Source: a virus. From it: a stretch of 21,589 bases of DNA. The notes under the pieces were generated by a model. That model worked only from the letters and a program-made list of their open reading frames with translations. It made no database searches and had not been told where the DNA came from. This document shows, piece after piece, positions 2,095 through 21,589 of the stretch. The position numbers and the translations under genes were made by a program. The stretch spans positions 1 through 21,589 of IMG/VR virus record IMGVR_UViG_3300025030_001400; one strand, 5' to 3'. Every line of letters begins with the position of its first letter. The stretch's first letter is position 1.

Positions 2095-3296
2095 GATGCC
2101 GCCACTGCGCGGCGGAGTTGACGGTGCAGATGGTGGACCTGGGCTCGGCGCCACCATCGAACGCTTTCCGGGACGGGCCGGACGGGGTAGAGCAATATTA
2201 CCCGCTGCAGGTGCTGGTCTGTACCGAGTGCTGGCTTGCGCAGACCAACCTCGACCTGTTCAAGATGGACTACGACGAGTTGTTCACGGCTGATTATCCA
2301 TATTTTTCCAGCACGTCGGCCAGTTTCGTTGCGCACGCCAAGCACTATGTCGAGGGTATGACAGAATCTTTGGGGTTGGGTCCGGACTCGCTGACTGTTG
2401 AGGTTGGATCGAACGATGGGTATTTGCTGCAATCCGTAAAGACACCTTGCTATGGAGTTGAACCAACAGCTACTGGCTACAAAGCCAATGAAAAAGGTAT
2501 CAAAACCGTCCATAGTTTTTTCACTGAAAAACTGGCAATAGAATTATCAAAAATTGGGAAGGCAGATTTGATGGTGGCAAATAATGTGCTCGCCCACGTC
2601 CCGGACATCAACGATTTCGTGAAGGGCTTCACCGCGCTGCTGAAGGATACCGGCGTTGCTACTTTCGAGTTTCCGCACTTGCTGAAAACTGTGCAAAGTA
2701 ATGATTTCACGCAGATGTACGCCGAACATTATTCCTACCTGTCGCTCACGGCCGTCAAGCGGATATTCAATTCTAATGGCCTGCGCATCTTTGATGTGGA
2801 GTGCCTGACCACGCATGGCGGCAGTCTGCGCGTGTATGCGCAAAAGGCAAATGGCGGGCTGCGCGAGCCCACCAATTTCGTGCGGATGATCATGGACCGT
2901 GAAGAAGAGGAAGGGGTGAAGACGCAAAAGTTCTACACCGATTTCCAGAAGGCGGCAGAGCGCGTGAAAAATGATTTGCTGATGTTTCTGCTGCAAGCCA
3001 AGCAACTCGGGCGCACCGTGGTCGGCTTCGGCGCGGCGGCCAAGGGCAACACACTGATCAACTTTGCCGGGGTGCGCGAGGACTTGGTGCAATACGTGGT
3101 CGATGACACACCCAGCAAGCAGGGTAAGTTCCTGCCCGGCAGTCGCATCCCGGTGCAGGCGGAATTCACCACGAAGCCGGACTATGTGCTGATTCTTCCT
3201 TGGAATTTTGGCGCTGACATCATCAAAAAACTGGAACCGATGCGCACGCATGGATGCAAATTCGTGACGGCCGTGCCGAGACTGGAGATACTGTGA
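2091..3296 (+). CDS. Zinc-ribbon sugar C-methyltransferase (TylCIII/NovU-type, SAM-dependent)
   Basis: 401 residues with the full three-part architecture of nucleotide-sugar C-methyltransferases. An N-terminal zinc site has CxxC at C3/C6 and C44/C47. A central SAM-binding Rossmann domain has VEVGSNDG (103-110), and EHYSYLS (212-218) corresponds to the conserved family motif containing the catalytic-region His; HGGSLRVY follows (242-249). The C-terminal domain has GFGAAAKGN (312-320) and DDTPSKQGKFLPGSRIPV (338-355). Family members methylate a carbon of a dTDP/GDP-keto-sugar or act as related sugar enzymes. The ATG at 2091 overlaps the glycosyltransferase stop, which links branched-sugar formation to its transfer. 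No deoxysugar biosynthesis genes are visible here, so the keto-sugar would have to come from the host or from genes outside the window. Confidence 0.88.
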   Translation: MRCRHCAAELTVQMVDLGSAPPSNAFRDGPDGVEQYYPLQVLVCTECWLAQTNLDLFKMDYDELFTADYPYFSSTSASFVAHAKHYVEGMTESLGLGPDSLTVEVGSNDGYLLQSVKTPCYGVEPTATGYKANEKGIKTVHSFFTEKLAIELSKIGKADLMVANNVLAHVPDINDFVKGFTALLKDTGVATFEFPHLLKTVQSNDFTQMYAEHYSYLSLTAVKRIFNSNGLRIFDVECLTTHGGSLRVYAQKANGGLREPTNFVRMIMDREEEEGVKTQKFYTDFQKAAERVKNDLLMFLLQAKQLGRTVVGFGAAAKGNTLINFAGVREDLVQYVVDDTPSKQGKFLPGSRIPVQAEFTTKPDYVLILPWNFGADIIKKLEPMRTHGCKFVTAVPRLEIL

Positions 3297-3346
3297 AACC
3301 TTGCATTAAATGCGGATCAATCTTGCAATCATATCAAGAGTGCTAA
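3293..3346 (+). pseudogene. 17-codon zinc-ribbon remnant between the two methyltransferase-type genes
   Basis: GTG 3293 overlaps the methyltransferase TGA (3294-3296) and reads MKPCIKCGSILQSYQEC before TAA 3344-3346. The CxxC near the start resembles the beginning of the zinc ribbons that open many phage HNH/homing endonucleases and small zinc proteins. It stops after 17 residues, and unrelated sequence follows up to the next gene. It may be the stump of a gene replaced by the CmcI-like cassette, or a chance micro-ORF. Confidence 0.35.
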
Positions 3347-3385
3347 ACATCCTGTAGACTTCATGCAGAGCAAAGGATATTTACT

Positions 3386-4135
3386 ATGAACAAAAATGTT
3401 CCCCACATATTGATTGATTTGGAAAATAAAACGCTCAATGGCGAGCCGCTCTATAGCAAAGCATCATTTGATCTATTGAACGAACTGCAAATCAAGGTCG
3501 GCTGGGAATTGCGATACCCATACACTGCATCATGGTTAGGTTTCCAACTTCTTCAAATCCCGCCTGATGCCCTACGAATTCAGGAGATCATCTACCAGCA
3601 ACGTCCTGATTTCATCGTAGAGACCGGCGTTGCGCACGGTGGCTCGGCGATCTTTATGGCAAGCATCTGCAAACTGATGGGTATTGGTCATGTAATCGGG
3701 GTAGAGAAAGGGCTTATTTGCCGAGAACAAATCGAAGCCCATGAACTTTCAGAATACATTACCCTCATCGAAGGTGATTCTGTTGGTAAAGAAATTGTGG
3801 ATCAAGTGTATAGATCATGCAGTGGAACGGATCGCGTTCTCCTTATCCTTGATAGTTGCCACAGCAAAGCTCACGTACTGGCCGAACTTGAGGCATATGC
3901 TGGTTTGATTCGGCCAGGGTCTATGATTATCGTGCAGGATGGGAATATGGCTACTCTGTGCGATACGCCGCGTGGTGATCCAGCTTGGCTACAGAACAAC
4001 CCACAAGAGGCTGTAAAGGAATTCATCAAACGACACCAAGAATTTATCATTGAGCAGCCTGACTTGAAGTTTGACAATGACGGGATAGCGAGTAACATTA
4101 CCTATCATACGAATGGATTCCTGAAAAGAATCTAA
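3386..4135 (+). CDS. CmcI-family SAM-dependent protein (annotated cephalosporin hydroxylase / rhamnosyl O-methyltransferase family)
   Basis: 249 residues of the CmcI fold. VETGVAHGGS (78-87) is the SAM-binding glycine loop. GVEKGL (105-110) ends the second strand. LDSCHSKAHV (155-164) is the metal/catalytic strand with conserved D and H, and QDGN (184-187) follows the next strand. Members include CmcI and rhamnosyl O-methyltransferases, and many lie in polysaccharide clusters. Beside a glycosyltransferase and a sugar C-methyltransferase, O-methylation of a sugar is more plausible than antibiotic hydroxylation. AAAGGA (3372-3377) precedes ATG 3386 by 8 bases. The gene is separated from its upstream neighbour by 89 bases containing a zinc-ribbon remnant, so it may have entered as its own unit. 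The family call is firm; the substrate is inferred. Confidence 0.82.
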   Translation: MNKNVPHILIDLENKTLNGEPLYSKASFDLLNELQIKVGWELRYPYTASWLGFQLLQIPPDALRIQEIIYQQRPDFIVETGVAHGGSAIFMASICKLMGIGHVIGVEKGLICREQIEAHELSEYITLIEGDSVGKEIVDQVYRSCSGTDRVLLILDSCHSKAHVLAELEAYAGLIRPGSMIIVQDGNMATLCDTPRGDPAWLQNNPQEAVKEFIKRHQEFIIEQPDLKFDNDGIASNITYHTNGFLKRI

Positions 4136-4244: not shown

Positions 4245-4859
4245 ATGAAACAGTTTTATACCTACCTTCACTGCCGCCCGGACGGGATGCCGTTTTATGT
4301 TGGCAAAGGTGGTGGTAGCAATAGCGAACGTCATCATGATTTCAAATGGAATAGAAACAAACACCACAAAAATATCATCGCCAAGCACGGTGCTGATAAC
4401 ATCCTTGTTTACATTTTCCATTGCGATTCAGAACAGCAATCGTTAGATGATGAAATTCAGCAGATCGCGCAGCTTCGCCGCGAAGGCTATGAGTTAGTCA
4501 ATATGACAGATGGTGGTGAAGGTACGAGTGGACTCAAGCATTCTGCTGAAAGCCGCGCCAAAATGTCTATTAATAGTCAAGGTAAAAATTTAGGTTTAAA
4601 GAGATCATTCGAAACACGCGCGAAGGTTGGTGCTGCTAAAAAAGGGAATAAATATTGTCTTGGTTTAAAACGCCCTCCTGAATTTGGAGCTGCAATATCA
4701 GCACGGCAATTAGGCAAAAAACCATCACCAGAATCTGTTGCAAAAATGGTTGCTACAAAAACAGGTAAATCATGGTCTGCTGCCAGAAGATTAGCGTTTG
4801 AAAATAGTAAATTCGTCAACATCAGGAACAATGTCAGCGGACAATTCAAAAGGAGATAA
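4245..4859 (+). CDS. GIY-YIG endonuclease with NUMOD3-like DNA-binding repeats (homing-endonuclease type)
   Basis: 204 residues. The N-terminal nuclease domain has YTYLH (5-9) and FYVGKG (17-22), the two halves of the GIY-YIG motif. A helix carrying the candidate catalytic glutamate follows (DDEIQQIAQL, E70), then NMTDGGEG (86-93). The C-terminal half is built of NUMOD3-like repeats: GLKHSAESRAKMS (96-108), GLKRSFETRAKVG (117-129), and GLKRPPEFGAA with GKKPSPESVAKM (140-150, 157-168). Such modules grip DNA in phage homing endonucleases. The gene is free-standing, with no intron or intein visible around it, and AT-richer than its neighbours. It starts directly on the stop of the 30-residue leader. 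It probably cuts related phage genomes at this locus. Confidence 0.87.
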   Translation: MKQFYTYLHCRPDGMPFYVGKGGGSNSERHHDFKWNRNKHHKNIIAKHGADNILVYIFHCDSEQQSLDDEIQQIAQLRREGYELVNMTDGGEGTSGLKHSAESRAKMSINSQGKNLGLKRSFETRAKVGAAKKGNKYCLGLKRPPEFGAAISARQLGKKPSPESVAKMVATKTGKSWSAARRLAFENSKFVNIRNNVSGQFKRR

Positions 4860-8547: not shown

Positions 8548-10002
8548 ATGTTGAGCCCGATTTTTGACAGTTTCAATCGCGACAGGTCAAGAAGTGGGAA
8601 TACTGACCAGTGCGTGAACATTTATCCTGAAGACATCGACGGGCCGAAGGGGCCTGAAATCGGACTGCTTATCAGCGTGCCCGGAAAGCGGTTGCTTGGA
8701 ACAATCGGCCCCGGCCCGATCAGGGGGATGTACGAAGGCAACGATGGACTGATGTACGTGGTAAGTGGTGCCGGGGTGTATTCGGCCACCACAGGGTACG
8801 CGGGCACCCTGCTCGGCACGATTGACAGCAGTTCTGGTGCCGTGTCGATCATCAACAGCCCAACACAAATTCTTGTTGTGGACGGTACCGGCGGATGGGT
8901 GTGGGATAGGGTTGCGCTGACCTTTACGAAAACCATCGAAAATGCCGGGACTGATTGCGTGAATCCTACGGCCGCCATTTATCAGGACGGCTTCGGCATC
9001 GTCAACTCTGACGACAATCAAATCTACCAGACGAACTACAACGACCTGGCCGCGATGACATCCGGATCACCGGCGACGGCAAACAATGCATATGTCCAGA
9101 ACAGTTCAAAAAATGTGGTTACCTTGTTCGACCTGAAGGAAGAGGTTTGGATATTCAAGGAAGATTCGATTGAGATATGGATCAACCAGGGAGCAGCCGG
9201 TTTTGCCTTCACGCCGCTGCAGGGCGTGTCTATCCCGGTCGGCTGTTCCGCGCTGGCATCCGTGGCGCAACTTGGCGAAAGCATCGCATGGCTTGGTGGC
9301 AGCGAACAAGGCAACGGCGTGGTGTATATGTCGGTAGGCTATCAAGCCGTCCCGATTACCACCCCCGCACTATCAACCCGGTTCCAGAATTTTTCATCCT
9401 TGTCTGATGCGGTTGCCTGGGGGTATCAGAAGGACGGGCATTATTTCTACGTGATCACGTTCCCAATCGAAGGGGAATCGTGGGCATATGACCTGAAAAC
9501 CAAAAAGTGGCACCGCCGCGCGGGGTTCAATAATGGCGTCATGACACGCGACATCGCCAATTGTTCCGTATTTTTCAACGGGCTGAATATCGTTGGCGAC
9601 TACCAGAACGGGAACATCTATGCGCTGGATAACGAGGTTTTTACCGACAATGGGATGAACAGGAAATGGGTGCGGTCGTGGCGCGCGCTTCCTTCTTCCA
9701 TGCCGCAAGGTGTACCAATGAGCTTCGATTCACTCCAGATTCTGCTGGAAACCGGCATCACCGTGCCCGCCGGGACGAACCCGCAGATCATGCTGCGCTG
9801 GTCAGACGACGGTGGGTACACATGGACGCAGGAATTTCAAGTTCAAATGGGCAAGACGGGCGAAACATCATGGCGCGCAATAAAGATCCGTTGCGGTTCA
9901 ACCAAAATCGGTACCGGCATGGACCGTATTTGGGAAATCTCAGGGGTTGATCCGGTCGAAATCAAGATCACTGGTGCTACCTTTGAGGGCGGCCCAGCAT
10001 AG
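8548..10002 (+). CDS. Packaged-DNA stabilisation protein, P22 gp10-like tail hub
   Basis: 484 residues, close to the ~472 of P22 gp10. The N-terminus has the family-type opening (SFNRDRS...QCVNIYPEDIDGPKG) leading to VPGKRLLG. Repeated beta-propeller-like blades follow: GPIRGMYEGNDGLMYVVSG, WIFKEDSIEIWINQG (about 197-211), and a block with ALASVAQLGESIAWLGGSEQ and DGHYFYVITFP. A later segment AYDLKTKKWHRRAG resembles the gp10 region with a Trp-bearing strand. In P22, gp10 sits between gp4 and the tail needle, stabilising DNA in the head. No Shine-Dalgarno precedes ATG 8548; with the upstream stop at 8543-8545, translation is probably coupled. The family call comes from pattern and neighbourhood. 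Confidence 0.8.
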   Translation: MLSPIFDSFNRDRSRSGNTDQCVNIYPEDIDGPKGPEIGLLISVPGKRLLGTIGPGPIRGMYEGNDGLMYVVSGAGVYSATTGYAGTLLGTIDSSSGAVSIINSPTQILVVDGTGGWVWDRVALTFTKTIENAGTDCVNPTAAIYQDGFGIVNSDDNQIYQTNYNDLAAMTSGSPATANNAYVQNSSKNVVTLFDLKEEVWIFKEDSIEIWINQGAAGFAFTPLQGVSIPVGCSALASVAQLGESIAWLGGSEQGNGVVYMSVGYQAVPITTPALSTRFQNFSSLSDAVAWGYQKDGHYFYVITFPIEGESWAYDLKTKKWHRRAGFNNGVMTRDIANCSVFFNGLNIVGDYQNGNIYALDNEVFTDNGMNRKWVRSWRALPSSMPQGVPMSFDSLQILLETGITVPAGTNPQIMLRWSDDGGYTWTQEFQVQMGKTGETSWRAIKIRCGSTKIGTGMDRIWEISGVDPVEIKITGATFEGGPA

Positions 10003-10671: not shown

Positions 10672-11078
10672 GCGTTACCAAACTAAATATCAACGCCGCC
10701 ACACCGCTGCTTGTCGGCAAGGATGACCGGATTTCGCCGGCATGGTACAATATCCTCTCCGCACTGATTCCCGGCGGCAGAAGCATCCAGGCGCCGCTCG
10801 ACGGGTTCAGTATCACGATCGAGGATGGAGTCGAAACGCTTATCCTGAACCCTGCCAGCGCGCTGGCAGCCGGAACGATCATCATGCCATCTGGCGCGGG
10901 TGATGGTGCCAAGGTAAAAATCACTTCCACGCAAACCATTACTACTTTGACAATTACCGCAGCGAAAGGGCAAACCGTCATGGATGCACCGACCGAACTT
11001 ACGGTTAGTTTGATCGCGCCGTATGGTTATGAGTTTGTTTTCGACGCTGATAGTGCTACGTGGTACCGGGTGCAGTGA
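10668..11078 (+). CDS. Small beta-structured phage virion-type protein
   Basis: 136 residues. The sequence reads as repeated short beta strands: FSITIEDGVETLILNPASAL, AAGTIIMPSGAGDGAKVKI, TQTITTLTITAAKGQTVMDAP and a C-terminal YEFVFDADSATWYRVQ. The pattern LNPAsaLAaGTIimPsgagDGakVkI...Qtittlti...aTWYRV recurs in small proteins encoded in phage tail regions and in fibre C-termini, and suggests a trimeric beta fold with a terminal Trp-Tyr-Arg strand. The start overlaps the upstream stop (ATGA), and the stop overlaps the next start (TGATG). It may form a tail tip, knob or decoration. It lies where P22-like phages have tail-needle functions, but it does not resemble the coiled-coil needle gp26. 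Confidence 0.65.
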   Translation: MSVTKLNINAATPLLVGKDDRISPAWYNILSALIPGGRSIQAPLDGFSITIEDGVETLILNPASALAAGTIIMPSGAGDGAKVKITSTQTITTLTITAAKGQTVMDAPTELTVSLIAPYGYEFVFDADSATWYRVQ

Positions 11079-11539
11079 TGGATGACTTGGTGACCGACCC
11101 ACGGGAAAGACTGAACGAACTGCAACGGGTGATGAGCACAATGCCGCAGGCAGAGGGGTTGGTAACCACGCATCACTTCGTACCCGGCCAATATTTGCGC
11201 AAGCTCTGGCGGCCAGAGGGCACGGTGATCATCGGTAAAGTGCATAAAGCACCGCACTTCTTCCTGTGTGCCATGGGTGAGATCGCCGTATCATCCGGGG
11301 ATGGCAACTGGAAGACGTTGAAAGCCGGGGATGTGATCGAATCGCAACCGGGCACAAAGCGCATCACGGTGGCCTTGACTGACGCAATCGGGATAACCGT
11401 ACACCAGACCTCACTTACCGACCTTGACGAAATCGAAGCTGCACTGATCGAGCCGGATGAACTGGCTTTGTTTGATGCGCGGAACGAGTTGCGAAATTTG
11501 GAAATTGGGGACACAATGAACAAACTAACGTCGGGATGA
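11078..11539 (+). CDS. Cupin-fold phage protein
   Basis: 153 residues from ATG 11078, which overlaps the previous stop. A GTG six codons upstream (11060) is less likely because it lies inside the neighbouring gene. The core runs THHFVPGQYLRKLWRPEG, TVIIGKVHKAPHFFLCAMGEI, KTLKAGDVIESQPGTKRI and ITVHQTSLTDLDEIEAALI. The order of strands, the HKxxH pair and the PGTKR turn are those of small cupin-like proteins repeatedly found in phage structural operons. Metal binding through the His residues is possible. The function in phages is unknown to me; its position suggests a virion component or assembly factor. The next gene begins 15 bases downstream with its own excellent ribosome site. Confidence 0.7.
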   Translation: MDDLVTDPRERLNELQRVMSTMPQAEGLVTTHHFVPGQYLRKLWRPEGTVIIGKVHKAPHFFLCAMGEIAVSSGDGNWKTLKAGDVIESQPGTKRITVALTDAIGITVHQTSLTDLDEIEAALIEPDELALFDARNELRNLEIGDTMNKLTSG

Positions 11540-11554
11540 TGTAAGGAGGTAATC

Positions 11555-12307
11555 ATGTCTTGGGTATATGCAGCAGTAGCAGTGGGTGGCGCATTGATTG
11601 GCGGTATTGCATCTAATCGTGCAGCCAATACGCAATCTGATGCCGCGAACAACGCCACCGCCGCGCAACAGGGCATGTTCGGAACAACGCAGCAAAATCT
11701 GCAACCGTACATGGAAGCCGGGCGCGCACCGCTGGCTCAACTGGTCTCAGGAACACAGCCCGGCGGCGATCTCATGCCGCAATCGTACACGCCATACGAC
11801 ATCGAGAAATTCAAAGCCTCACCTGAATACCAGATCATGATGCAGCAGAATGCAGAGGCGCTCAACGCATCGCAGAATGCCTCTTCTCTGTCCGGCGGCG
11901 CGAACAGCAATAACATGAAGAGCTTGATGGGGTGGACGCAAGGCAATGCAGTCAACCAGTATCAGACCGGCCTGAGCAATTATCTCCAGCAGTTCCTGAC
12001 TGGCAATCAGGCCAAGGCGCAGCAATTCGGTACATACCAAACGCTTGCCGGCATGGGGCAGAATGCCGCCGCTGGCCTGGGCGACATCGGAACAAAAGTC
12101 GGCGGGCAAATCGGCGAAAATATCATCGGTGCCGGGAACGCGCAGGCAGCGGGCACAGTCGGGGTAGGCAATGCGATCACCGGAGCCATGGGGCAAGGTT
12201 ATAATTCCTGGTTGCAGCAGCAATACCTGAACAAGTATGCGTTGAATAACGGCATGTCTGGTGCAGAGTATTCGAATGCAGAAGGCGTGCCGATTACTTT
12301 GCAGTAA
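11555..12307 (+). CDS. DNA-ejection (internal virion) protein with N-terminal glycine-zipper helix
   Basis: 250 residues. AAGGAGGT (11543-11550), a near-perfect ribosome site, precedes ATG 11555. Residues 4-20 (VYAAVAVGGALIGGIAS) form a hydrophobic glycine-zipper helix able to enter a membrane. An Ala/Gln/Asn-rich helix with QQGMFGTTQQNLQPYMEAGRAPLAQLVSG follows. This arrangement (helix, QxxLxPYxxAGxxAL, then SPEYQ and long Ala/Gly/Gln-rich helices) is characteristic of podovirus DNA-transfer/ejection proteins. They are packed in the head, leave with the DNA and help form the trans-envelope channel. The Gly/Ala-rich stretch around IIGAGNAQAAGTVGVGNAITG may be a second membrane-active segment. 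It probably acts with the next two gene products. Confidence 0.78.
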   Translation: MSWVYAAVAVGGALIGGIASNRAANTQSDAANNATAAQQGMFGTTQQNLQPYMEAGRAPLAQLVSGTQPGGDLMPQSYTPYDIEKFKASPEYQIMMQQNAEALNASQNASSLSGGANSNNMKSLMGWTQGNAVNQYQTGLSNYLQQFLTGNQAKAQQFGTYQTLAGMGQNAAAGLGDIGTKVGGQIGENIIGAGNAQAAGTVGVGNAITGAMGQGYNSWLQQQYLNKYALNNGMSGAEYSNAEGVPITLQ

Positions 12308-12317
12308 AGGATAAATC

Positions 12318-13430
12318 ATGCCCGTAAATAGTCAAATCCCACTGCAAGTCCAGCAACCTCAATTCATGACCCCCTTCGAGGGGATGTCAGGCGCGCAAAC
12401 CATTCAACAGCAGATGCAGTCAACGCAACTGAACCAGCAGAAACTTGCGGCCGGCCAGCACGAATTGAACAATCAGATGTTGTTGTCCAGAATCGCCGCC
12501 GTGCCGGGCAGCATCGATCCAGCAACCGGGCTTTGGTCGCAGACCGCTATCGACAGCATCGTTCAAGCAAACCCTGTTCTTGGGCGGGATATTCTGCAAA
12601 AACAGACCAAAGACAAAATGGCTATCGAGCAATTAAGCCTGCAAAAAAATAAAAACCTGGCGGCAATGCACAAGGCAGGTTCTGACGCTATCAATGACGA
12701 GCAGCTTGATGCTGTTGGCGCAGCAGATGCGGCACCCGCAGAAAAACGCGAAGAGGTTTATGCCGCTAAATGGGCGGAAGGGCGTGCCCGGCTGAAGAAG
12801 ACCGGACTTTTTTCAGAGGATACGCAATTCGCTGATATGTCCTACAAACAGGCAAAGGAAATCTTGTTGCGTCGCGGCGGCAAAGAAGACAAGAATGCGG
12901 TTCAAGATATTGCGAATGCGCGCGACATAATCAACGATCTAAAAACAGAGTATTCCCATCTGGATTCGAAAAGCCCGCAGGCTGCGCAGATCATGGAAAA
13001 GATTCGTGATGGTGAAGAGGCAATCAAGCGGATGAAAGCAATGCCAGGCGGAGAGAATAAAGAACCATCCAACATTCAAACTGCCCGGATATTGCTGGAG
13101 AACAAAAACAATCCTGATTTCATCAACGCATTCAAAATGGGTAAAAGCTCTGCCGATCCGGTTGGAGTTACAGCCAGCGCGCTGTACAAATCGTATACCG
13201 ATGAAGATATGTGGCCGTCAGAAATTGAAGATGCATCGCAGGATGAAAAGGTTGCCTATGTGCGGAAACTTGCCGGTGCTTTGCACAATAAAGAATCTGG
13301 GGTTAAAAAGGATGAAGTTGTCACCCGGTTCGAGGGCGACAAGGACATGGAGGGTATGGTCCTTGGCAAGAAGACTGCCAAAGGCTATGAAGTGATGAGA
13401 GGTGGCAAGCTGGCCGGGTATTATCAGTAA
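12318..13430 (+). CDS. Helical internal virion / ejection protein
   Basis: 370 residues, ATG 12318 with AAAGGA (12306-12311) 6 bases upstream. The N-terminus is Gln/Pro-rich (QIPLQVQQPQ...), then comes GAQTIQQQMQSTQLNQQKLAA and a long, charged, largely helical body (KQTKDKMAIEQLSLQKNK, AEGRARLKK, DIANARDIINDLKTEYSHLD) with few cysteines and no strong membrane helix. The sequence family is not recognised by name. A helical Gln/Lys/Asp-rich protein between a glycine-zipper ejection protein and a giant virion-delivered protein fits the second of the usual trio of podovirus ejection proteins. The C-terminus KTAKGYEVMRGGKLAGYYQ looks like a short beta element. Its stop TAA overlaps the giant gene's ATG (TAATG), so the two are translated in strict sequence. 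Confidence 0.72.
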   Translation: MPVNSQIPLQVQQPQFMTPFEGMSGAQTIQQQMQSTQLNQQKLAAGQHELNNQMLLSRIAAVPGSIDPATGLWSQTAIDSIVQANPVLGRDILQKQTKDKMAIEQLSLQKNKNLAAMHKAGSDAINDEQLDAVGAADAAPAEKREEVYAAKWAEGRARLKKTGLFSEDTQFADMSYKQAKEILLRRGGKEDKNAVQDIANARDIINDLKTEYSHLDSKSPQAAQIMEKIRDGEEAIKRMKAMPGGENKEPSNIQTARILLENKNNPDFINAFKMGKSSADPVGVTASALYKSYTDEDMWPSEIEDASQDEKVAYVRKLAGALHNKESGVKKDEVVTRFEGDKDMEGMVLGKKTAKGYEVMRGGKLAGYYQ

Positions 13431-16400
13431 TGCCATTCATCCCACTCCAAGAAAATGACGCATCTATGCAACGGCCAGATGGGTCACAGAAAGGCATGGG
13501 TTTTCTTGGGCCACTTAAATTTCACGATGGAAGAACTTCTACAGAACTTTCTGTTGGTGTAAATATAAATGGCAAGGAAACCGATATTCCTGCTTTAGTA
13601 CCAACACTTTCAAAAGATGAAATATCTTATCTATTGAGCGGTGGCAAGCCAACTGATTCTATCGTCATAAAGGCGCGCCAGCACGCTGAACAGCGCATCA
13701 AACAAGGTAAATCTGTCTTTGCTGGTCCTGATGATTATCAAGCACAGCAAACGAAAAAAATTGGTTTCACACCACTAGCGGATGCTGATGAGCCAACAAT
13801 TGCGGCGAAGCGCGGTTTCACGCCGATCGAAACACATCGCACATGGGGCAAAGCAGCGCAGGATCTCGCATCCAAGTTATACGCTCCAGACAAACAGCGC
13901 GAATATGACCGCACCAACGCGGCGATGCGCGACCATCTCGCGCTTGAACAAAATCCGATAGTTCCCGGCATACAGCGCAACTCAGGCGGCACGATTGAAG
14001 CACCTGTCTCCGCGCTTATGGCTGCCAGCCGCCGTGATGCGCAACCAACCAGCGCGTTAAGCGATAGCACAGAAGTTGCCAGGCAATTGGTCGCTGGCGC
14101 GGTGACGCGCACACCTGAAATGGTTGGATCAGCACTTAATTGGTGGGCACCGGAAGGGTCTGAAGCAGAGCGTTTAGGCAAGGTCGCAAAGGAATACTGG
14201 AAAGAAAAAGGCAAGGGATGGGAGCCTGACTTGAAAGGTCGCGGGGTTGTCGCATCCACGCTGATTGAGGGCGCCGCGCAGGTTGCCCCGTCCGTTTTAG
14301 GTATGGCCGCAGCGGCAGTAAATCCGATTGTTGGCGGCACTTTTGTGGCAATGCTCTTTGGCGGACAACAGGCTCAGGAAACATACGACAAAGGAATCGC
14401 TGCCGGATTACCACCAGAAGAGGCAACGCAGGCCGCCTACCGCACTGGGCTGATTGAAGGATTTGGGGAAACAATCGCCGATGTCACTGGCGCAAAATTA
14501 TTGTCCGGCGCCGGGAAAGCGATCTGGACTGCCTGGAAAGGAACGGCAGCCGGCGCAGCAAAAGCCGCGACCTCTCCGCAATGGGCAATGCGCTTTGCGA
14601 AGGACTGGACGGCGAATGCGACCATTCAATCCGCGACAGAATATGGTCAAGGCTATGGTGAGGCCGCTGTTGAAAAGGCTTATGGAGTTGATACCCAAGC
14701 CCCGAGTCAGGCTGGCGCACATGGCGCGCGCGTGGCTCTGGGCATGTCTGCCTTGCTTGGTATCCCAAGTGCTGTATCACAACGCAATATGGGGCAAAAT
14801 AGGGCAAAGATCGGCGAATTGCTGAATGACCCCAATGCCCCGGAAGAACTGCGCATCGGCGCGGCGAAGTTCGTGGCCAGCGACATATCGCGAGACGTTG
14901 GCAAGGAAAAGGCGGATCAATGGCTTGGGCAAGTAACCAAAGCAATCTCAACCACAGTGCCAGCCGATACCGCGCCGAGTGCGGAGTCCGTCCCACAAAT
15001 TCACAAACCAGAGAAAGCCGATGCCCTCGAAGCCGCCGACCTACTGTCAGAAGCCAAGGCAACGCCTGCAAATGCTCCCGCTGCCCAAGGCTTCACCCCG
15101 ACTGAACCGACGCAGCCAAGGCCCAAACGCGGCCCAACTGACGAAGAATCTGCACAAATGGCAAAGGACGCTGCCGCCTACCGGAAACTTCAGGAGGAAA
15201 CGCAGACCAAATCCCCACCACCCGCCCCGCCCGGTGCGCCGACTTTCACACCAGAGCCTGGCGATGTGCCGACAGCACCGCGCCATGCCGTCGCCGGGTT
15301 GCCGGTCCAGGAAATGCCGTTAAACGACTTGAAATTATCTGGGGAAGTGCCACAATTCAAGAAGGCGGCGAACGCTGCAGGAATCGTCATGCCGCTGGGC
15401 GGGAATTTTGACCGCACCGGGGTAGCGCCGATTCAGGTTTGGGAGCGGCTGAATGGCGACATGGAGATCATTTCCGGCCGGCACCGGTTCGATCTGGCCA
15501 AGCGCAGCGGCGAAGAGACATTGCCGGCGCAGATCCACCGCGAAGCCGATGGGTTCAATGTAAGACAGGCGGCCCGGCTGGATGCCGAGCTCAACATTCG
15601 AGACGAACAAGGAGGGGTGTCAGATTATGCAAGCTACTTCAAAAACTCTGCTATCGCGGAAAAGGACGCCGACGCAGCAGGACTTTTGGCGCGGCCAAAG
15701 GGAAAAGCTGGATTCGCAATCGCGCGAGACGCAGGAGAGGATGTCTTTGCCTCGCATAGTGCCGGTATCATTTCCGACGAAGCAGCCCTTGCAATAAGCC
15801 GGGCAGCACCCGGCGACAACACCATTCAGGCAGTCGGCCTGAAGATGGTGAACGAAGGAAAGAGCATCACCCTGGCCGAGAACACCATGCGCGCCATCAG
15901 CATGATGCAAAAGAACGGAGAAGCCAAGCCGGAACAGGGCGACATCTTCGGGTTCGATGACTCCGCCATCCGGGAAGCAGAAGCCATGGCCAAGCGTGCC
16001 GCCGCAGCGCAGCGCGCCATCCGGGAACAACTCGCCTCCGTGTCCGGGGCCACCAAGCGCCCGGAGATCGCCCGCAAGCTGGGCGTGGACGTGAAGGACC
16101 CGGAAGCTGTCAAAGCCAAGATCGCCGAACTGCATGCTGCCGCGAACCGGCTGGCCAACTGGCCGACACACCCTGACTTGGTGAAGGAATTCCGCGGTGT
16201 TTCACGTGAAACAGAGGCCAAGCCAGCAGCCAAAGCAGAACGCCGCCAGACCCACGCAGAGCGCCGCACGCGCTACGCCGCGATGTCGCCGGACGAACTG
16301 CGCGCCGAACTGGAAGCAAAAGACCGCCGCATCTTCACCAGCCACTTGACCGGGTTGCCGAATAAAGCCGCCTATGAAGAGGTAGCCAAGATGCCGGTAC

Positions 16401-19400
16401 AGGCCTTTGCCGACATTGATGGGCTCAAAGGGGTCAACGACACGCTTGGGCATGACGTGGGTGATGTGCTGATCCAAGCACTGGCTGGCGCGCTGAAAAA
16501 GGAAACCAATCAGGCTTTTCACATCAGCGGCGATGAATTCTATGTCCAGGGCGAGACGGTCGCCGATGTGGAAGCGATCATGAATGCCGCGCTCAAAACC
16601 CTGTCTGAACAGGGATTCGAATACACCGCGCCAGACGGCACCGTTATCACCAAGAAAGGAATGGGGTTCAGCTATGGAACAGGGAAAGACATCAAATCAG
16701 CCGAAGAGAGGCTATACGCCGATAAGCAGGCCCGAAAAGAACTCGGGCTCCGTACTGAACGCGCCGACACTCCAGCGGTGGCTGCTAAACCTGCCGCCGG
16801 GCGGAAAATTGAAACTGAAAAACAAGCCGTAGAAACCATTGGCCGTGCCGACGCGACCGAAGCAGAGAAGCAGGCTGCATGGGATGTACTGCACAAAAGC
16901 GCTGAGAAACCAACGAAAGGAATTACCGATGATAAAACCGCCGAAGCCCAGCAAAACAAACAGATCAAGAAGACCACGCAAAAAACCTTAGATAGAGAGT
17001 CTGCCAGTTCTCATCCTGCTGCAGAAACATCCGCTGTTCCGCCCATTATACCTAAAAATGCCACAAGTGATCCCCTCAAACCCTACATTGACACGCTGAT
17101 CAAACGCAAACGCTTTGCCGACGAGATCCACCTTGGCCGGAAACTGGATGCCGCGATCAACAAGGCCAAAGCCGCGATGCAGTCCGGTACCGGTACACCG
17201 GCCGACTTCACCAAGGCCGCCAAGTGGTTCCGCGACAAGGATACGGTGACTGAAAAGGCTTTGCTGGATATTGCGGATACGCTCAAGGGCAAGTATGTAG
17301 CCAAGGCCAAGCAACCCGAAAAACCAAAATACGAAACAGGCGTTCCTGTATCTGCAACTGTTTATCATGGCAGCGATCATGGCAACATAAGCCGGCAACC
17401 CTCTGGACTGACATTTTTTACAGATGACAAGGCCGCAGCAAAGCGCTACGGCAAGAATGTTGCACCTGTTCAAATCCAGTTGAAGAATCCATTGGTCATT
17501 GACTATAAGGAAGCTGATGATTCAGAGTTAATTGGCTTTGATATTCAGGACGCAATGGAAACCGGGCATGATGGAATCGTTGCGCTGAATACCGATGACG
17601 GGAAGCAGATACTCAATCAGTTCGTGGTATTCAAGCAACCAGCCGCCGAAGCTGGCAAGATCAAAGGCTATGCTGGGCAACATCGGCCTGTTACAACCGA
17701 GGGCGGCGCAGCACGGTTAGATGATTTAACTCCTGCATTCGGAGAAGATATTTACGGGAAAGATGCGGCGCAGTTTTTTGGCACCGGGGACGATACATTA
17801 GATCAAGAAACTTTGCGAATTCTAACATCTATCAGAGGCAATCCAGACGCATTGATAAGCGTTTATCGTGCAGTGCCAAGAGGTGAGCCAAGCCAAGAAA
17901 CAATAAACCCAGGAGACTGGGTTAGCGTCAATAAAAAATATGCTGCACAGCATGGGCAAGCAACGCTCAGAGGAAAATATAAAATAATTGAGCAGAAAGT
18001 GCGCGCAGCAGATTTAACGACAAACGCAGACTCATTCCATGAGCAAGGATATTATCCGAAGACCAAGGAAACCGACAAAGGATCCGCCCTTTATTCGCAA
18101 GGCCAAGCCACCGTAAATCCCCATACAGTTTCATCCCTGAAAACCGCCCTGATCGAAGCCCACATCGGCAAGGATAAACTCGCTCTATCAGCCATGATGG
18201 AAGCTGGCAAGGCGAAGGTGATTACGGCGGAACAGGCTGGGGGGATTGTTGGGGATAAGTTGTTTGCCGACATACCAGTGTTTGATGACGGCGATAAAAT
18301 TTCGGAATACTTTTCTGGAATGATTGACTTTAAATACGACGATGCCCCGTGGGGTGTGGCGGTTCTTCGTGATGATGGAGTTGTTGCAATTGGAGACGGT
18401 TTAGATAATAGTTTTGAATGGATAGAAGGAAGTAAAGAAGAGACTCTTGAATTAAATGGCTTATCAACCGTTGGGATAAACGATGATTTGTCAGATGAAT
18501 CTATATCAAGTGCAGTAAATTATCTTCTTGATAATTATGGATTTGAAGGTTCTCAGGTGGTGCTTGTAAGGGGGACATCTGCATTCGGCGGACAAGACAG
18601 AAATGAGTCCGTGATTAAAGACCCCGTGGTCGAGGCTATAGCATTTTACGGAAAAGGCCCATCAAAAGACGGAAAGCCAACTGCATTCTACAACCCCTCT
18701 GACGCGACAACTTATTTCATCGCTGATAACCTATCCGCAGACACCACAGCAGCCGACCTGAAAGGGCTTGTAAGGCATGAGATTTCTACGCACGCGCTTC
18801 ACTTAGGCCGCGATAGCAAGGAATTCCAATCCATCCTACGCCAGCTTGATTTTATGAAGGGGAACGGCAACAAGAAGGTGATGGAAGCCTTTGCGCGTGT
18901 GCCCGCTGATACCGCGCCGGAGCACGTGAGCGAGGAAAGTCTGGCCTATCTCGTGCAACACAATCCAGAACTCGGCATCGTCAAGCGCGTGATCGCCTGG
19001 TTCCGTAATTCAATCCGCTCTATCCTGTCAAAAGGAAAGTTGGCTGACTGGGCAAATAGACTGACCACCGATGATCTTCAGTACATGGCGCAGACCGCTT
19101 TATCGAGAGACAATGGTATTGAATCACGTGAAGGGGCACTGCTTTACGATGCACCCGCTGACAAATTCTATTCTCAGTTGCGGGTAGTGATGCGCGATGC
19201 CCCAGACAAGATATTCGGCAATGCCGCATCCGTGAAGCTATGGCTGCAAGCGAACGCAGCGAAGAATGAAATCAAAAAAGATGAGCTATTTTGGACGGGG
19301 ATTACCGACTGGTTTGATATTCAAGGCAAGGTCACCAAGGCCGACGTGCTGGCGTTTCTTGACCAGAATGGCGTGCGCGTGGAAACGAAGGTGCTTGGTG

Positions 19401-21589
19401 AAAACATTGAGCCTATCAGACTGACCCAAAAAGAAAATGACGAATATAGCAAACTTGACGGCATGGATGAGCGTGGAGTATTGCCGGACAATTTACGCGA
19501 ACGTTACCAAACACTTCATGCGCTAGTTTCTTCTGCGCTTGCAACATCGGAGAATAATTACAAAAAAGAAACCAAACACGGCGGCGGCAACCTAGTCCTA
19601 CCCGGCGGCTCCAATTACCGCGAAATGGTACTGATTGCACCGCAAGCAGAGAAGTGGGGCGAGAGCGACACAACCCACTACGGCGATACCGGGGGAGGCA
19701 AAGCTATCGGCTGGCTGCGCATGGACGACCGCACGACTGCGGACGGGAGAGAGGCGCTGTTTCTGGAAGAGTTGCAGAGCAAGCGTGGGCAAGCAATAAG
19801 AACCGATGGGATTTTAACTCCTGACACGCATCAAGATGAACGTATTGCCCTAAAGAAGCAACTGAACGAAGCACAAGATAAGGCGCGAGAGTTGCGCGAG
19901 CAAGGCGGTGATTGGACAAATCCTCCAGATGGTTTATGGAACCAATATCAAGACGTTATCGCTGAGACAAACCGTATTGATGACGAATTAAGAAAAATAC
20001 CCTCTCCGCGTGGAGTTCCGTCCATGCCCTTCGTCAGCGACTCAAGTGGAAAAGCAACTCAAGCATACATCACACTCAGCATGAAGCACGCAATCCTTGA
20101 CGCCATCGAACGCGGCAAGGACGTGGTGACGTGGACAACCGGAAAGCAGCAGAAAGACCGGTATTCGCTTTCTAAACAGATTCAGTCGCTATCGTGGGCT
20201 AAATACACTGATGACAAAGTTGACCTGTTTGCTGTAAAAAATGGCGGCACAGAAGAAAAGATGGGCAGATATAGCCTTGGCGAATTGCCAGATGTTGTTG
20301 GCAAAGACTTGGCGAAAAAAATATCCGATGAATTTTCAACTGGTGCGGTGAATGGCGAATATAGCGGCCTTGCTCTGGACGTAGGCGGCGAATGGACAGA
20401 TGCCATGTACGGCGACGAGAACGGGTTGAACGCCAAAGGCCAGCCAAGCATGATGACGCAGGCGGTGAACGGCATCTTCAAGCAGTTGAAGATCGAGGGG
20501 AAGGTTGAGAGTTTTGCGATGCCAACAAAACCTTGGAAAGTTACTGATAGAAACGGGAATATCTATCTATTTGACAATCGCACAGAAGCTGATGAGTATG
20601 GAGAATCGTCTGATGGAATAACAAGTAAAGCAGAAGGAGAAACGCAGCCTGGCTTCACCATCACCCCAGAACTCCGCGCCAAGGTAATGAACGAAGGGCT
20701 GCCGCTGTTCAGCCGCGAGAGCAACATCGGCGATACCGGGCGGGAAAGAGCGCCGATAGTTCCATTGGTATCAGAAGCCATCACCGGAGACAGATTCACT
20801 CTGCCCGGCGAAACTCAAGCGCAACTGTCACAGCGTAAGATACAGAACGCACAGAACCGCTGGAAGGTCATTCAAGATGCCGTTGTTGAGCAAGGGGGAA
20901 CAATCACCGAAGAAACGAACGTGGCGGACGCGATGGAACGCTTCCCTGGGCGTGTCGCCGCAGCGATGCTTGACTTTGGGAACAACAGACTGGAGCCGAT
21001 GATGAAGCAGATCGTTTCGTCTGGAACCACGCTCGATGATGTAAGTCTGTTGGCCTATGCTGAACACGCCCCAGAGCGCAACCGTGAAATGGCGAAGATC
21101 AACCCGCTGTTCCCGAATGATGGGACTCCAGGTAAATCTGGTTCTGGCATGACAGACCAAGATGCCGCAGATATCATCGCCCACTTCAAGGCGCAACAGA
21201 ACGCCAAGGATGTGTTCGCGCTGACCAACGATTTGCGCGCTATTGCCAATAAACGGCTGGACAAGCTCGCTTTGAGCGGGTCTATGTCACAGGAGCAGGT
21301 CAACGCATACCGGGCGAAATACACGGCCTATGTCCCACTCAAGGGGTTTGAGCCGATTGACGAGGCTGGGATACCCAACGGAACCGGGAAGGGTTTCTCG
21401 ACTGGAAAGAAGATAGATATGCGTGCGCTGGGTCGCGGAAGCCGCGCCGGGCAGGTGGCGCAGAATGTCTTCAGGGATTACCAATTAGGGCTTTTATTGG
21501 CTGAAAAGGCACGGCTTGGCAAGGTCGTAGCGGCCTTTGTAAAGGCTAACCCCGACAACGCCCTATGGACGGTCGGAGAAGCGCCCAAG
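13430..21589 (+). CDS. Giant polyvalent ejected protein (partial, at least 2720 residues)
   Basis: The frame opens at ATG 13430, overlapping the previous stop, and is stop-free to the right edge: 2720 codons with no C-terminus yet. Order of parts: 15-100, a virion-type N-terminal module; ~275-400, a hydrophobic Ala/Gly-rich segment that may enter membranes; ~624-740, ParB/DdrB-like; 964-~1080, GGDEF; ~1309-1404 and ~1428-1544, two ADP-ribosyltransferase-like domains; 1618-1731, an AT-rich unknown insert; ~1745-1850, HExxxH metallopeptidase-like; ~1908-2430, a large polyvalent-associated domain ending in LPLFSRES; ~2450-2720, a further LPD-type domain cut by the window edge. Pro/Ala/Lys-rich linkers separate them. 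Family knowledge: polyvalent proteins travel in the virion and carry several host-takeover or counter-defence activities. Helicase or methyltransferase domains often follow and may lie beyond the window. Domain calls are from motifs read by eye. Confidence 0.85.
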   Translation, partial: MPFIPLQENDASMQRPDGSQKGMGFLGPLKFHDGRTSTELSVGVNINGKETDIPALVPTLSKDEISYLLSGGKPTDSIVIKARQHAEQRIKQGKSVFAGPDDYQAQQTKKIGFTPLADADEPTIAAKRGFTPIETHRTWGKAAQDLASKLYAPDKQREYDRTNAAMRDHLALEQNPIVPGIQRNSGGTIEAPVSALMAASRRDAQPTSALSDSTEVARQLVAGAVTRTPEMVGSALNWWAPEGSEAERLGKVAKEYWKEKGKGWEPDLKGRGVVASTLIEGAAQVAPSVLGMAAAAVNPIVGGTFVAMLFGGQQAQETYDKGIAAGLPPEEATQAAYRTGLIEGFGETIADVTGAKLLSGAGKAIWTAWKGTAAGAAKAATSPQWAMRFAKDWTANATIQSATEYGQGYGEAAVEKAYGVDTQAPSQAGAHGARVALGMSALLGIPSAVSQRNMGQNRAKIGELLNDPNAPEELRIGAAKFVASDISRDVGKEKADQWLGQVTKAISTTVPADTAPSAESVPQIHKPEKADALEAADLLSEAKATPANAPAAQGFTPTEPTQPRPKRGPTDEESAQMAKDAAAYRKLQEETQTKSPPPAPPGAPTFTPEPGDVPTAPRHAVAGLPVQEMPLNDLKLSGEVPQFKKAANAAGIVMPLGGNFDRTGVAPIQVWERLNGDMEIISGRHRFDLAKRSGEETLPAQIHREADGFNVRQAARLDAELNIRDEQGGVSDYASYFKNSAIAEKDADAAGLLARPKGKAGFAIARDAGEDVFASHSAGIISDEAALAISRAAPGDNTIQAVGLKMVNEGKSITLAENTMRAISMMQKNGEAKPEQGDIFGFDDSAIREAEAMAKRAAAAQRAIREQLASVSGATKRPEIARKLGVDVKDPEAVKAKIAELHAAANRLANWPTHPDLVKEFRGVSRETEAKPAAKAERRQTHAERRTRYAAMSPDELRAELEAKDRRIFTSHLTGLPNKAAYEEVAKMPVQAFADIDGLKGVNDTLGHDVGDVLIQALAGALKKETNQAFHISGDEFYVQGETVADVEAIMNAALKTLSEQGFEYTAPDGTVITKKGMGFSYGTGKDIKSAEERLYADKQARKELGLRTERADTPAVAAKPAAGRKIETEKQAVETIGRADATEAEKQAAWDVLHKSAEKPTKGITDDKTAEAQQNKQIKKTTQKTLDRESASSHPAAETSAVPPIIPKNATSDPLKPYIDTLIKRKRFADEIHLGRKLDAAINKAKAAMQSGTGTPADFTKAAKWFRDKDTVTEKALLDIADTLKGKYVAKAKQPEKPKYETGVPVSATVYHGSDHGNISRQPSGLTFFTDDKAAAKRYGKNVAPVQIQLKNPLVIDYKEADDSELIGFDIQDAMETGHDGIVALNTDDGKQILNQFVVFKQPAAEAGKIKGYAGQHRPVTTEGGAARLDDLTPAFGEDIYGKDAAQFFGTGDDTLDQETLRILTSIRGNPDALISVYRAVPRGEPSQETINPGDWVSVNKKYAAQHGQATLRGKYKIIEQKVRAADLTTNADSFHEQGYYPKTKETDKGSALYSQGQATVNPHTVSSLKTALIEAHIGKDKLALSAMMEAGKAKVITAEQAGGIVGDKLFADIPVFDDGDKISEYFSGMIDFKYDDAPWGVAVLRDDGVVAIGDGLDNSFEWIEGSKEETLELNGLSTVGINDDLSDESISSAVNYLLDNYGFEGSQVVLVRGTSAFGGQDRNESVIKDPVVEAIAFYGKGPSKDGKPTAFYNPSDATTYFIADNLSADTTAADLKGLVRHEISTHALHLGRDSKEFQSILRQLDFMKGNGNKKVMEAFARVPADTAPEHVSEESLAYLVQHNPELGIVKRVIAWFRNSIRSILSKGKLADWANRLTTDDLQYMAQTALSRDNGIESREGALLYDAPADKFYSQLRVVMRDAPDKIFGNAASVKLWLQANAAKNEIKKDELFWTGITDWFDIQGKVTKADVLAFLDQNGVRVETKVLGENIEPIRLTQKENDEYSKLDGMDERGVLPDNLRERYQTLHALVSSALATSENNYKKETKHGGGNLVLPGGSNYREMVLIAPQAEKWGESDTTHYGDTGGGKAIGWLRMDDRTTADGREALFLEELQSKRGQAIRTDGILTPDTHQDERIALKKQLNEAQDKARELREQGGDWTNPPDGLWNQYQDVIAETNRIDDELRKIPSPRGVPSMPFVSDSSGKATQAYITLSMKHAILDAIERGKDVVTWTTGKQQKDRYSLSKQIQSLSWAKYTDDKVDLFAVKNGGTEEKMGRYSLGELPDVVGKDLAKKISDEFSTGAVNGEYSGLALDVGGEWTDAMYGDENGLNAKGQPSMMTQAVNGIFKQLKIEGKVESFAMPTKPWKVTDRNGNIYLFDNRTEADEYGESSDGITSKAEGETQPGFTITPELRAKVMNEGLPLFSRESNIGDTGRERAPIVPLVSEAITGDRFTLPGETQAQLSQRKIQNAQNRWKVIQDAVVEQGGTITEETNVADAMERFPGRVAAAMLDFGNNRLEPMMKQIVSSGTTLDDVSLLAYAEHAPERNREMAKINPLFPNDGTPGKSGSGMTDQDAADIIAHFKAQQNAKDVFALTNDLRAIANKRLDKLALSGSMSQEQVNAYRAKYTAYVPLKGFEPIDEAGIPNGTGKGFSTGKKIDMRALGRGSRAGQVAQNVFRDYQLGLLLAEKARLGKVVAAFVKANPDNALWTVGEAPK
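15299..15650 (+). other. ParB/DdrB-like domain inside the giant protein
   Basis: Residues ~624-740. LPVQEMPLNDLKLSGEVPQF resembles the opening strand of ParB-like domains, VAPIQVWERLNGDMEIISGRHR follows, and SGRHRFDLAKRSG (682-694) is the ParB GxHR-type box II. DdrB-like ParB domains are a known component of polyvalent proteins; nuclease or CTP-linked DNA-binding activity is possible. Confidence 0.7.
16319..16670 (+). other. GGDEF (diguanylate-cyclase-like) domain inside the giant protein
   Basis: Residues ~964-1080. HLTGLPNKAAYEEV is the canonical opening (D.LTGLxNR-like). FADIDGLKGVNDTLGHDVGD contains the metal-binding D995 and substrate-binding N/D residues, and HISGDEF (1031-1037) is the signature loop. 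The inhibitory I-site position (RxxD ten residues before the loop) reads KETN, so product inhibition is probably lost. The C-terminal part GFSYGTGKDIKSAEERLYADKQARK matches the usual final helix region. Confidence 0.85.
17354..17640 (+). other. First ADP-ribosyltransferase-like domain (H-Y-Q type)
   Basis: Residues ~1309-1404: VYHGSDH (H1313), FFTDDKAAAKRYG (Y1340), IQLKNPLVIDY, HDGIVAL and NQFVVFKQ. The order matches PARP-like ART domains of phage proteins. The residue at the catalytic Glu position is Gln (Q1397), which may abolish or change transfer activity. Confidence 0.6.
17711..18061 (+). other. Second ADP-ribosyltransferase-like domain (R-S-E type)
   Basis: Residues ~1428-1544: ISVYRAVPRGE (R1480), GDWVSVNKKYAAQHG (S1499) and NADSFHEQGYYP (E1538). 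The three elements, in this order, match ART-fold domains that recur in phage and polyvalent proteins, with the R, S and E positions all kept. Confidence 0.6.
18662..18980 (+). other. HExxxH metallopeptidase-like domain
   Basis: Residues ~1745-1850: PTAFYNPSDATTYFIADN leads to the helix LVRHEISTHALHLG (H1783, E1784, H1788), and SEESLAYLV (E1835/E1836) may give the third ligand. The HExxxH spacing, rather than HExxH, is usual for the polyvalent-protein peptidase family. Confidence 0.65.

What the first reader, a model, noticed from the sequence alone, without database searches (positions are those of the whole stretch)
13430..21589. Giant co-injected polyvalent protein, still open at 2720 codons
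A single stop-free frame occupies the last 38% of the window and joins at least seven recognisable domains to a virion-type N-terminus. It directly follows ejection genes and starts on their stop (TAATG). This is consistent with a protein loaded into the head and delivered with DNA. The particular set (ParB-like, GGDEF, two ART-like, metallopeptidase, LPDs) suggests one protein attacking several host systems at once.
Basis: partly seen in the sequence, partly recalled or inferred. Interest (0 to 1): 0.78.

Follow-up and report, generated by a model that had tools for sequence, protein, structure and literature searches.

The report
Giant injected multi-enzyme phage protein
The end of this phage fragment carries one very long gene for a multi-enzyme protein that the virus probably packs in its head and pushes into the bacterium with its DNA; it belongs to a known class, but its mix of parts, including a signalling-enzyme domain, is unusual.

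Summary
One stop-free frame, 13430-21589 (2720 codons, no N), starts on the previous gene's stop (TAATG) and runs off the contig. It looks like a real gene: a second contig is identical through residue 902, and relatives keep the order of its parts. It follows a P22 gp7-type ejection gene and an unassigned gene, in the slot of ejection protein gp16.

It is a polyvalent protein, a class described in 2017 (PMC5512222). A conserved ParB-like core recurs in 69 ORFs of the loci examined. Then come a GGDEF domain (motif SGDEF), two ART-like domains (the second keeps its R-S-E residues; the first lacks the acidic one), an HExxxH zincin with all four hallmark residues, and a ~510-aa unknown region. 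Last is the beginning of a ~900-aa C-terminal module that ends in LPD38 in relatives; the full protein should have about 3,350 residues. A distant relative, JC1 gp69, was found in purified virions (PMC9144972).

New here: GGDEF beside the ParB core is known only from this protein and one prophage remnant, and groups with small free-standing phage GGDEFs. The C-terminal module has a confident fold without PDB match. Injection is inferred; enzyme activity is untested.

The parts
8548..10002 (+). head closure Hc3 (P22 gp10-type) gene; marks a P22-like short-tailed virion module
   Evidence: PHROG phrog_578 E 2e-82
11555..12307 (+). DNA ejection protein, P22 gp7 type
   Evidence: phrog_598 'DNA ejection' E 4e-24
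12318..13430 (+). gene in the gp20 position; no family match, 63% identical copy in L003
   Evidence: position
13428..13432 (+). TAATG stop/start overlap between the gp20-slot gene and the giant gene
   Evidence: sequence printed
13430..21589 (+). giant polyvalent protein, 2720 aa present, 3' end missing; predicted full length about 3,350 aa
13472..13738 (+). mobile N-terminal module (residues 15-103); a free-standing ~100-aa protein in Acinetobacter and Methylophilales podoviruses and at the C-terminus of other phage proteins
14243..14368 (+). hydrophobic stretch (residues 272-313), possible membrane-inserting segment
   Evidence: hydropathy
15281..16246 (+). ParB/Noc-like core (residues 618-939) with SGRHR motif at 682-686; the most conserved part of the family
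   Evidence: 48% identity to NVP1183O_15 and X14 gp01; 32-sequence alignment; weak Noc/ParB profile match E 0.02
16325..16738 (+). GGDEF (diguanylate-cyclase-like) domain, residues 966-1103; D995, N1003, D1012 and SGDEF 1033-1037 present; no RxxD inhibitory site
   Evidence: PF00990 E 5e-11, above cut-off; PDB matches; phage alignment
17357..17629 (+). ART-PolyVal-like domain, residues 1310-1400; H1313 present, acidic strand-5 residue absent
   Evidence: PF18760 E 8e-6, below cut-off
17645..18073 (+). second ART-like domain, residues 1406-1548; R1480, S1499, E1538 (R-S/T-E pattern)
   Evidence: phrog_2579 E 9e-32; alignment with R and E invariant
18377..18640 (+). unknown domain, residues 1650-1737
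   Evidence: phrog_18666 E 4e-10
18662..19093 (+). zincin-like metallopeptidase, HEISTH 1783-1788 plus E1836
   Evidence: H, E, H, E invariant in 34 sequences
19217..20749 (+). X region, residues 1930-2440, shared with other giant phage proteins; function unknown, weak GNAT-like hint
20795..21589 (+). first ~265 aa of the ~900-aa C-terminal module that ends in LPD38 in relatives

Best explanation
This is the third ejection-slot gene of a P22-like short-tailed phage, enlarged into a polyvalent protein of about 3,350 residues. It is probably loaded into the head, expelled early through the channel made by the gp7- and gp20-slot proteins, and refolds in the host. The C-terminal ~900-aa module is most likely the fixed part needed for packaging or passage, and the ParB-like core binds the entering DNA or a nucleotide. 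Between them lies an exchangeable cassette of enzymes (cyclic-nucleotide synthase, ADP-ribosyltransferase, zinc peptidase) that either cuts the chain into working pieces or modifies host targets. Shown: the frame, gene order, domains, conserved catalytic residues, and conserved core and C-terminal module with a variable middle. Inferred: packaging, ejection, processing and every enzymatic act.
For: Frame and junction. gp7-type ejection gene upstream. Same slot in Vibrio phage 1.183.O (P22-like gene order). In relatives the ORF just before the giant often matches endolysin or transglycosylase families; of 24 ORFs one step further up, four match phrog_598 and four phrog_4287, both DNA ejection. 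ParB core in 69 ORFs. LPD38 in 14 of 17 giants. C module 876-933 aa in most of 45 representatives, median 637 aa from the segment seen here to the stop. Effector repertoire varies between members (methylase, helicase, PBECR5, GNAT, ART). Distant homologue JC1 gp69 (4515 aa; C-module match) in purified virions, 51 unique peptides. Precedent for a 3,500-aa ejected protein: N4 vRNAP (PMC12633501). Catalytic residues.
Against: No packaging data exist for this phage. The assignment of the gp20-position gene rests on position only. The C module matches no solved structure, so its packaging role is a guess from conservation, and most of it lies beyond the contig. The homology with JC1 gp69 covers only residues 2456-2720 by pairwise alignment.
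Confidence: 0.75

Rival explanations
1. It is a virion-packaged structural or ejection-channel component (an oversized gp16) whose enzyme domains are mostly relics; the domain mix reflects recombination, not attack on the host.
For: The first ART-like domain lacks its acidic residue; most of the length is unassigned; the most conserved parts are the ParB core and C module, not the enzymes.
Against: Zincin H, E, H, E invariant across 34 relatives; GGDEF and R-S-E residues intact. Relics would not be expected to keep them.
Confidence: 0.17
2. It is made in the infected cell and acts there, and is not carried in the particle.
For: Free-standing phage GGDEF relatives such as YuA gp44 lie outside the virion module, near an anti-restriction gene, so the domain also serves as an intracellular gene product.
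Against: Position among late virion genes in the window and relatives; JC1 relative found in virions.
Confidence: 0.06
3. The long frame is an assembly chimera of unrelated giant genes.
For: Fragment from a metagenome; no second contig was found for the 3' part.
Against: Identical second contig to residue 902; GGDEF-ParB adjacency in L161; zincin-X-C order in L090.
Confidence: 0.02

Closest known systems
Polyvalent proteins of phages and conjugative elements (Iyer et al. 2017, PMC5512222)
   Same: Several unrelated enzyme domains in one chain, zincin-like peptidase (HExxxH subset described there), ART and ParB-type domains, virion gene context; the paper reports GGDEF together with zincin and ART in an Acetonema prophage protein.
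   Different: This domain order with the ParB/Noc-like core was not found in the passages read. Pfam did not call the DdrB-type ParB family here.
Vibrio phage 1.183.O NVP1183O_15 and Shewanella phage X14 gp01
   Same: Length 2706 and 2740 aa, same slot after ejection genes in 1.183.O, 48% identical ParB core, LPD38 C-terminus in NVP1183O_15.
   Different: No detectable match to the window's GGDEF, ART or zincin regions; the middle differs.
DarB-like protein of Bcep22-like podoviruses (BcepIL02 gp70, JC1 gp69)
   Same: Same C-terminal module; virion protein by mass spectrometry in JC1.
   Different: 4515-4667 aa, annotated as DarB-like antirestriction; no match to the ParB core in BcepIL02 gp70.
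N4 virion RNA polymerase gp50
   Different: No RNA polymerase domain found here; no fold match of the C module in the PDB.
Free-standing phage GGDEF proteins (Pseudomonas YuA gp44, Bordetella MW2)
   Same: [SA]GDEF motif and the GFSFGTG and DK..R endings shared with the window domain.
   Different: 152-156-aa single-domain proteins; YuA gp44 lies outside the virion module.

Membership tests
Phage polyvalent proteins | two or more disparate effector domains in one chain | tested here: met
   GGDEF, R-S-E-type ART, zincin, ParB-like
Phage polyvalent proteins | gene lies among late virion genes | tested here: met
   head closure, gp7-type and gp20-slot genes upstream
Phage polyvalent proteins | protein carried in the virion and delivered with DNA | not testable with these tools
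   only the distant relative JC1 gp69 has virion mass spectrometry
Polyvalent zincin-like metallopeptidase | HExxH or HExxxH plus downstream glutamate | tested here: met
   HEISTH 1783-1788 and E1836, invariant in 34 sequences
Diguanylate cyclase (GGDEF) | GGDEF domain with metal- and GTP-binding residues | tested here: met
   PF00990 above cut-off; D995, N1003, D1012, SGDEF
Diguanylate cyclase (GGDEF) | makes c-di-GMP | not testable with these tools
   first motif glycine is serine; no assay
ART-PolyVal (H-Y-D type) | H, Y and acidic residue triad | tested here: not met
   H1313 present, F at the aromatic position, N/Q at the acidic position, judged against four sequences; Pfam score below cut-off
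R-S-E type ADP-ribosyltransferase | R, S/T, E signature | tested here: met
   R1480, S1499, E1538; R and E invariant in four sequences; assigned by pattern only, no profile of a known ART family matched
ParB/Noc | ParB N-terminal fold with GERR-like box | tested here: inconclusive
   PF02195 E 0.05 below cut-off, Noc structure E 0.02, SGRHR motif conserved
P22 gp16 ejection protein | sequence homology to gp16 | tested here: not met
   no Pfam or PHROG match to a gp16 family; only the slot agrees
N4-type virion RNA polymerase | single-subunit RNA polymerase domain | tested here: not met
   none found
LPD38 giant proteins | LPD38 at the C-terminus | tested here: inconclusive
   expected about 330 aa beyond the contig end; present in 14 of 17 proteins scanned

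The most novel reading that the evidence does not exclude
The phage delivers a working cyclic-dinucleotide synthase inside its particle, so a second messenger rises in the host before any phage gene is read; the same phage GGDEF clade is used both as an injected domain and as a free gene.
Probability: 0.3. Interest if true: 0.75.

Novelty: new member of a known kind. Interest (0 to 1): 0.45.

Why it matters
If delivered, one polypeptide would bring a nucleotide cyclase, an ADP-ribosyltransferase and a peptidase into the cell with the DNA. The comparison also suggests a simple rule for these giants: a conserved ParB core and a conserved ~900-aa C-terminal module with exchangeable enzymes between them. 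This makes the question of what packages and threads such proteins directly testable, by deleting or transplanting the C module. That module has a confident predicted fold with no PDB match.

Tried and rejected
N-terminus as an ejection signature: rejected; the same module is free-standing or at other proteins' C-termini, and in L011 sits in the upstream ORF. Residues 110-617: no phage match. 'LPD5' for residues 1590-1740: rejected; the Stx-phage proteins so annotated match at the zincin. X region: AlphaFold pLDDT 69, Foldseek best E 0.08, GNAT-like chains but not significant. C module: no PDB match at E<=0.001, 72 viral matches. Extension of the contig by 30 bases near its end: none. GGDEF relatives in viral contigs by a single-sequence scan: none. 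Stx-phage giant proteins were not fetched. Literature on LPD38 function: none found.

Full report
Observation. The frame 13430-21589 is open for 2720 codons, has no N, and begins on the stop of the preceding gene, TAATG. Chance would give such a run with probability near 2e-51 at this composition. The window is a complete but linear IMG/VR record of 21,589 bp, so the gene is cut by the contig end. A second IMG/VR contig is identical across the junction and the first 902 residues. No viral contig was found to continue past the end.

Setting. Upstream are a tailspike, head closure Hc3 (phrog_578, E 2e-82) and a P22 gp7-type DNA-ejection gene (phrog_598, E 4e-24), then an unassigned gene in the gp20 position. 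The giant gene therefore sits where P22-like phages keep gp16 (gene order 7-20-16 as in PMC8954989). Vibrio phage 1.183.O has the same order, with a 2706-aa gene in that slot, and Shewanella phage X14 has a 2740-aa relative. Among relatives fetched from viral contigs, the ORF before the giant often matches endolysin or transglycosylase families, and the ORF before that DNA-ejection families (four of 24 match phrog_598, four phrog_4287). This fits a peptidoglycan-crossing ejection module.

Domains. Residues 618-939 are the best conserved part, 48% identical to 1.183.O and X14. A profile finds this core in 69 ORFs of the loci examined. It resembles ParB/Noc only weakly by profile (PF02195 below cut-off), with the SGRHR box conserved. 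Residues 966-1103 are GGDEF by Pfam above cut-off and by PDB relatives. D995, N1003, D1012 and SGDEF 1033-1037 are present and there is no RxxD site; that SGDEF and AGDEF variants can be active is from my own knowledge. Residues 1310-1400 resemble ART-PolyVal (E 8e-6, below cut-off), with H1313 but F in place of Y and N/Q in place of the acid (only four comparison sequences). Residues 1406-1548 match a phage family (phrog_2579) in which R1480 and E1538 are invariant and S1499 is S or T, an R-S-E pattern. Residues 1745-1888 are a zincin with H1783, E1784, H1788, E1836 invariant in 34 sequences; Iyer et al. describe such an HExxxH subset. Residues 1930-2440 (X) recur in other giants without known function.

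C-terminal module. Residues 2456-2720 are the start of a module whose profile matches 121 ORFs. The module is 876-933 aa long in most of 45 representatives, also exists as a separate gene of 900-960 aa (L072, L086), and carries LPD38 near its end. LPD38 is found in 14 of 17 giants scanned. In complete ORFs the stop lies a median of 637 residues past the segment seen here (5-95%: 554-679), so the full protein should have about 3,350 residues (roughly 3,270-3,400). AlphaFold2 of the free-standing L072 copy gives pLDDT 84 and pTM 0.82. Foldseek finds no PDB chain at E<=0.001 but 72 predicted viral structures. It is thus a shared phage module with no solved relative.

Family pattern. Complete giants with this ParB core run from about 1,800 to over 4,000 aa, and the middle varies: methylases, helicases, PBECR5, GNAT, ART-PolyVal. 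GGDEF was found in only two proteins with the core, the window and L161, a prophage remnant in a Lysobacteraceae assembly, in a set with 133 ORFs over 1500 aa. Both share an [SA]GDEF clade with free-standing phage GGDEF proteins such as YuA gp44 and Bordetella MW2. Relatives of the core in bacterial assemblies are mainly in Proteobacteria, and frames of 3172 and 5290 aa with the core occur in one genome of the order of the L161 genome. The window's host is not determined.

Mechanism. Most likely the protein is packed in the head and ejected early. Support: the slot; the relatives; JC1 gp69, a distant relative through the C module, in purified virions with 51 unique peptides (PMC9144972); and the precedent of N4 vRNAP, about 3,500 aa, 4+/-1 copies, proposed to be threaded as beads on a string (PMC12633501). 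The zincin may cut the chain, as proposed for P1 DdrB. A GGDEF could raise a cyclic dinucleotide early and disturb nucleotide-based host responses, as Iyer et al. suggested for such domains. None of these acts is shown here.

Verdict. The feature is real and well explained as a new member of the polyvalent class. The interest lies in the probably injected cyclase-like domain and in the conserved C-terminal module without a known fold.

Noticed in passing
window 562-4135: A family 2 glycosyltransferase, a C-methyltransferase and a rhamnosyl O-methyltransferase-like gene lie before the tailspike, suggesting sugar or O-antigen modification.
   Followed up: partly
window 4245-4859: ORF with a NUMOD3 motif, as in homing endonucleases.
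   Followed up: no
window 11060-11539: Weak cupin match in a gene that is conserved next to gp7 in the Vibrio-phage relatives.
   Followed up: no
L011 5469-8336: The N-terminal module of the giant lies here near the C-terminus of the upstream ORF instead, so it moves between the two neighbours.
   Followed up: partly
L126 2603-10294 and 10104-12803: The C module is split over two overlapping ORFs in different frames: frameshift, sequencing error or programmed shift.
   Followed up: no
L161 1361-4056: GGDEF-ParB prophage remnant next to an ORF that reads like a transposase or integrase; a TAG interrupts the frame near the end of the ParB core.
   Followed up: partly
L072 597-3491: Free-standing copy of the C-terminal module with LPD38, confident predicted fold without PDB relative.
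   Followed up: yes
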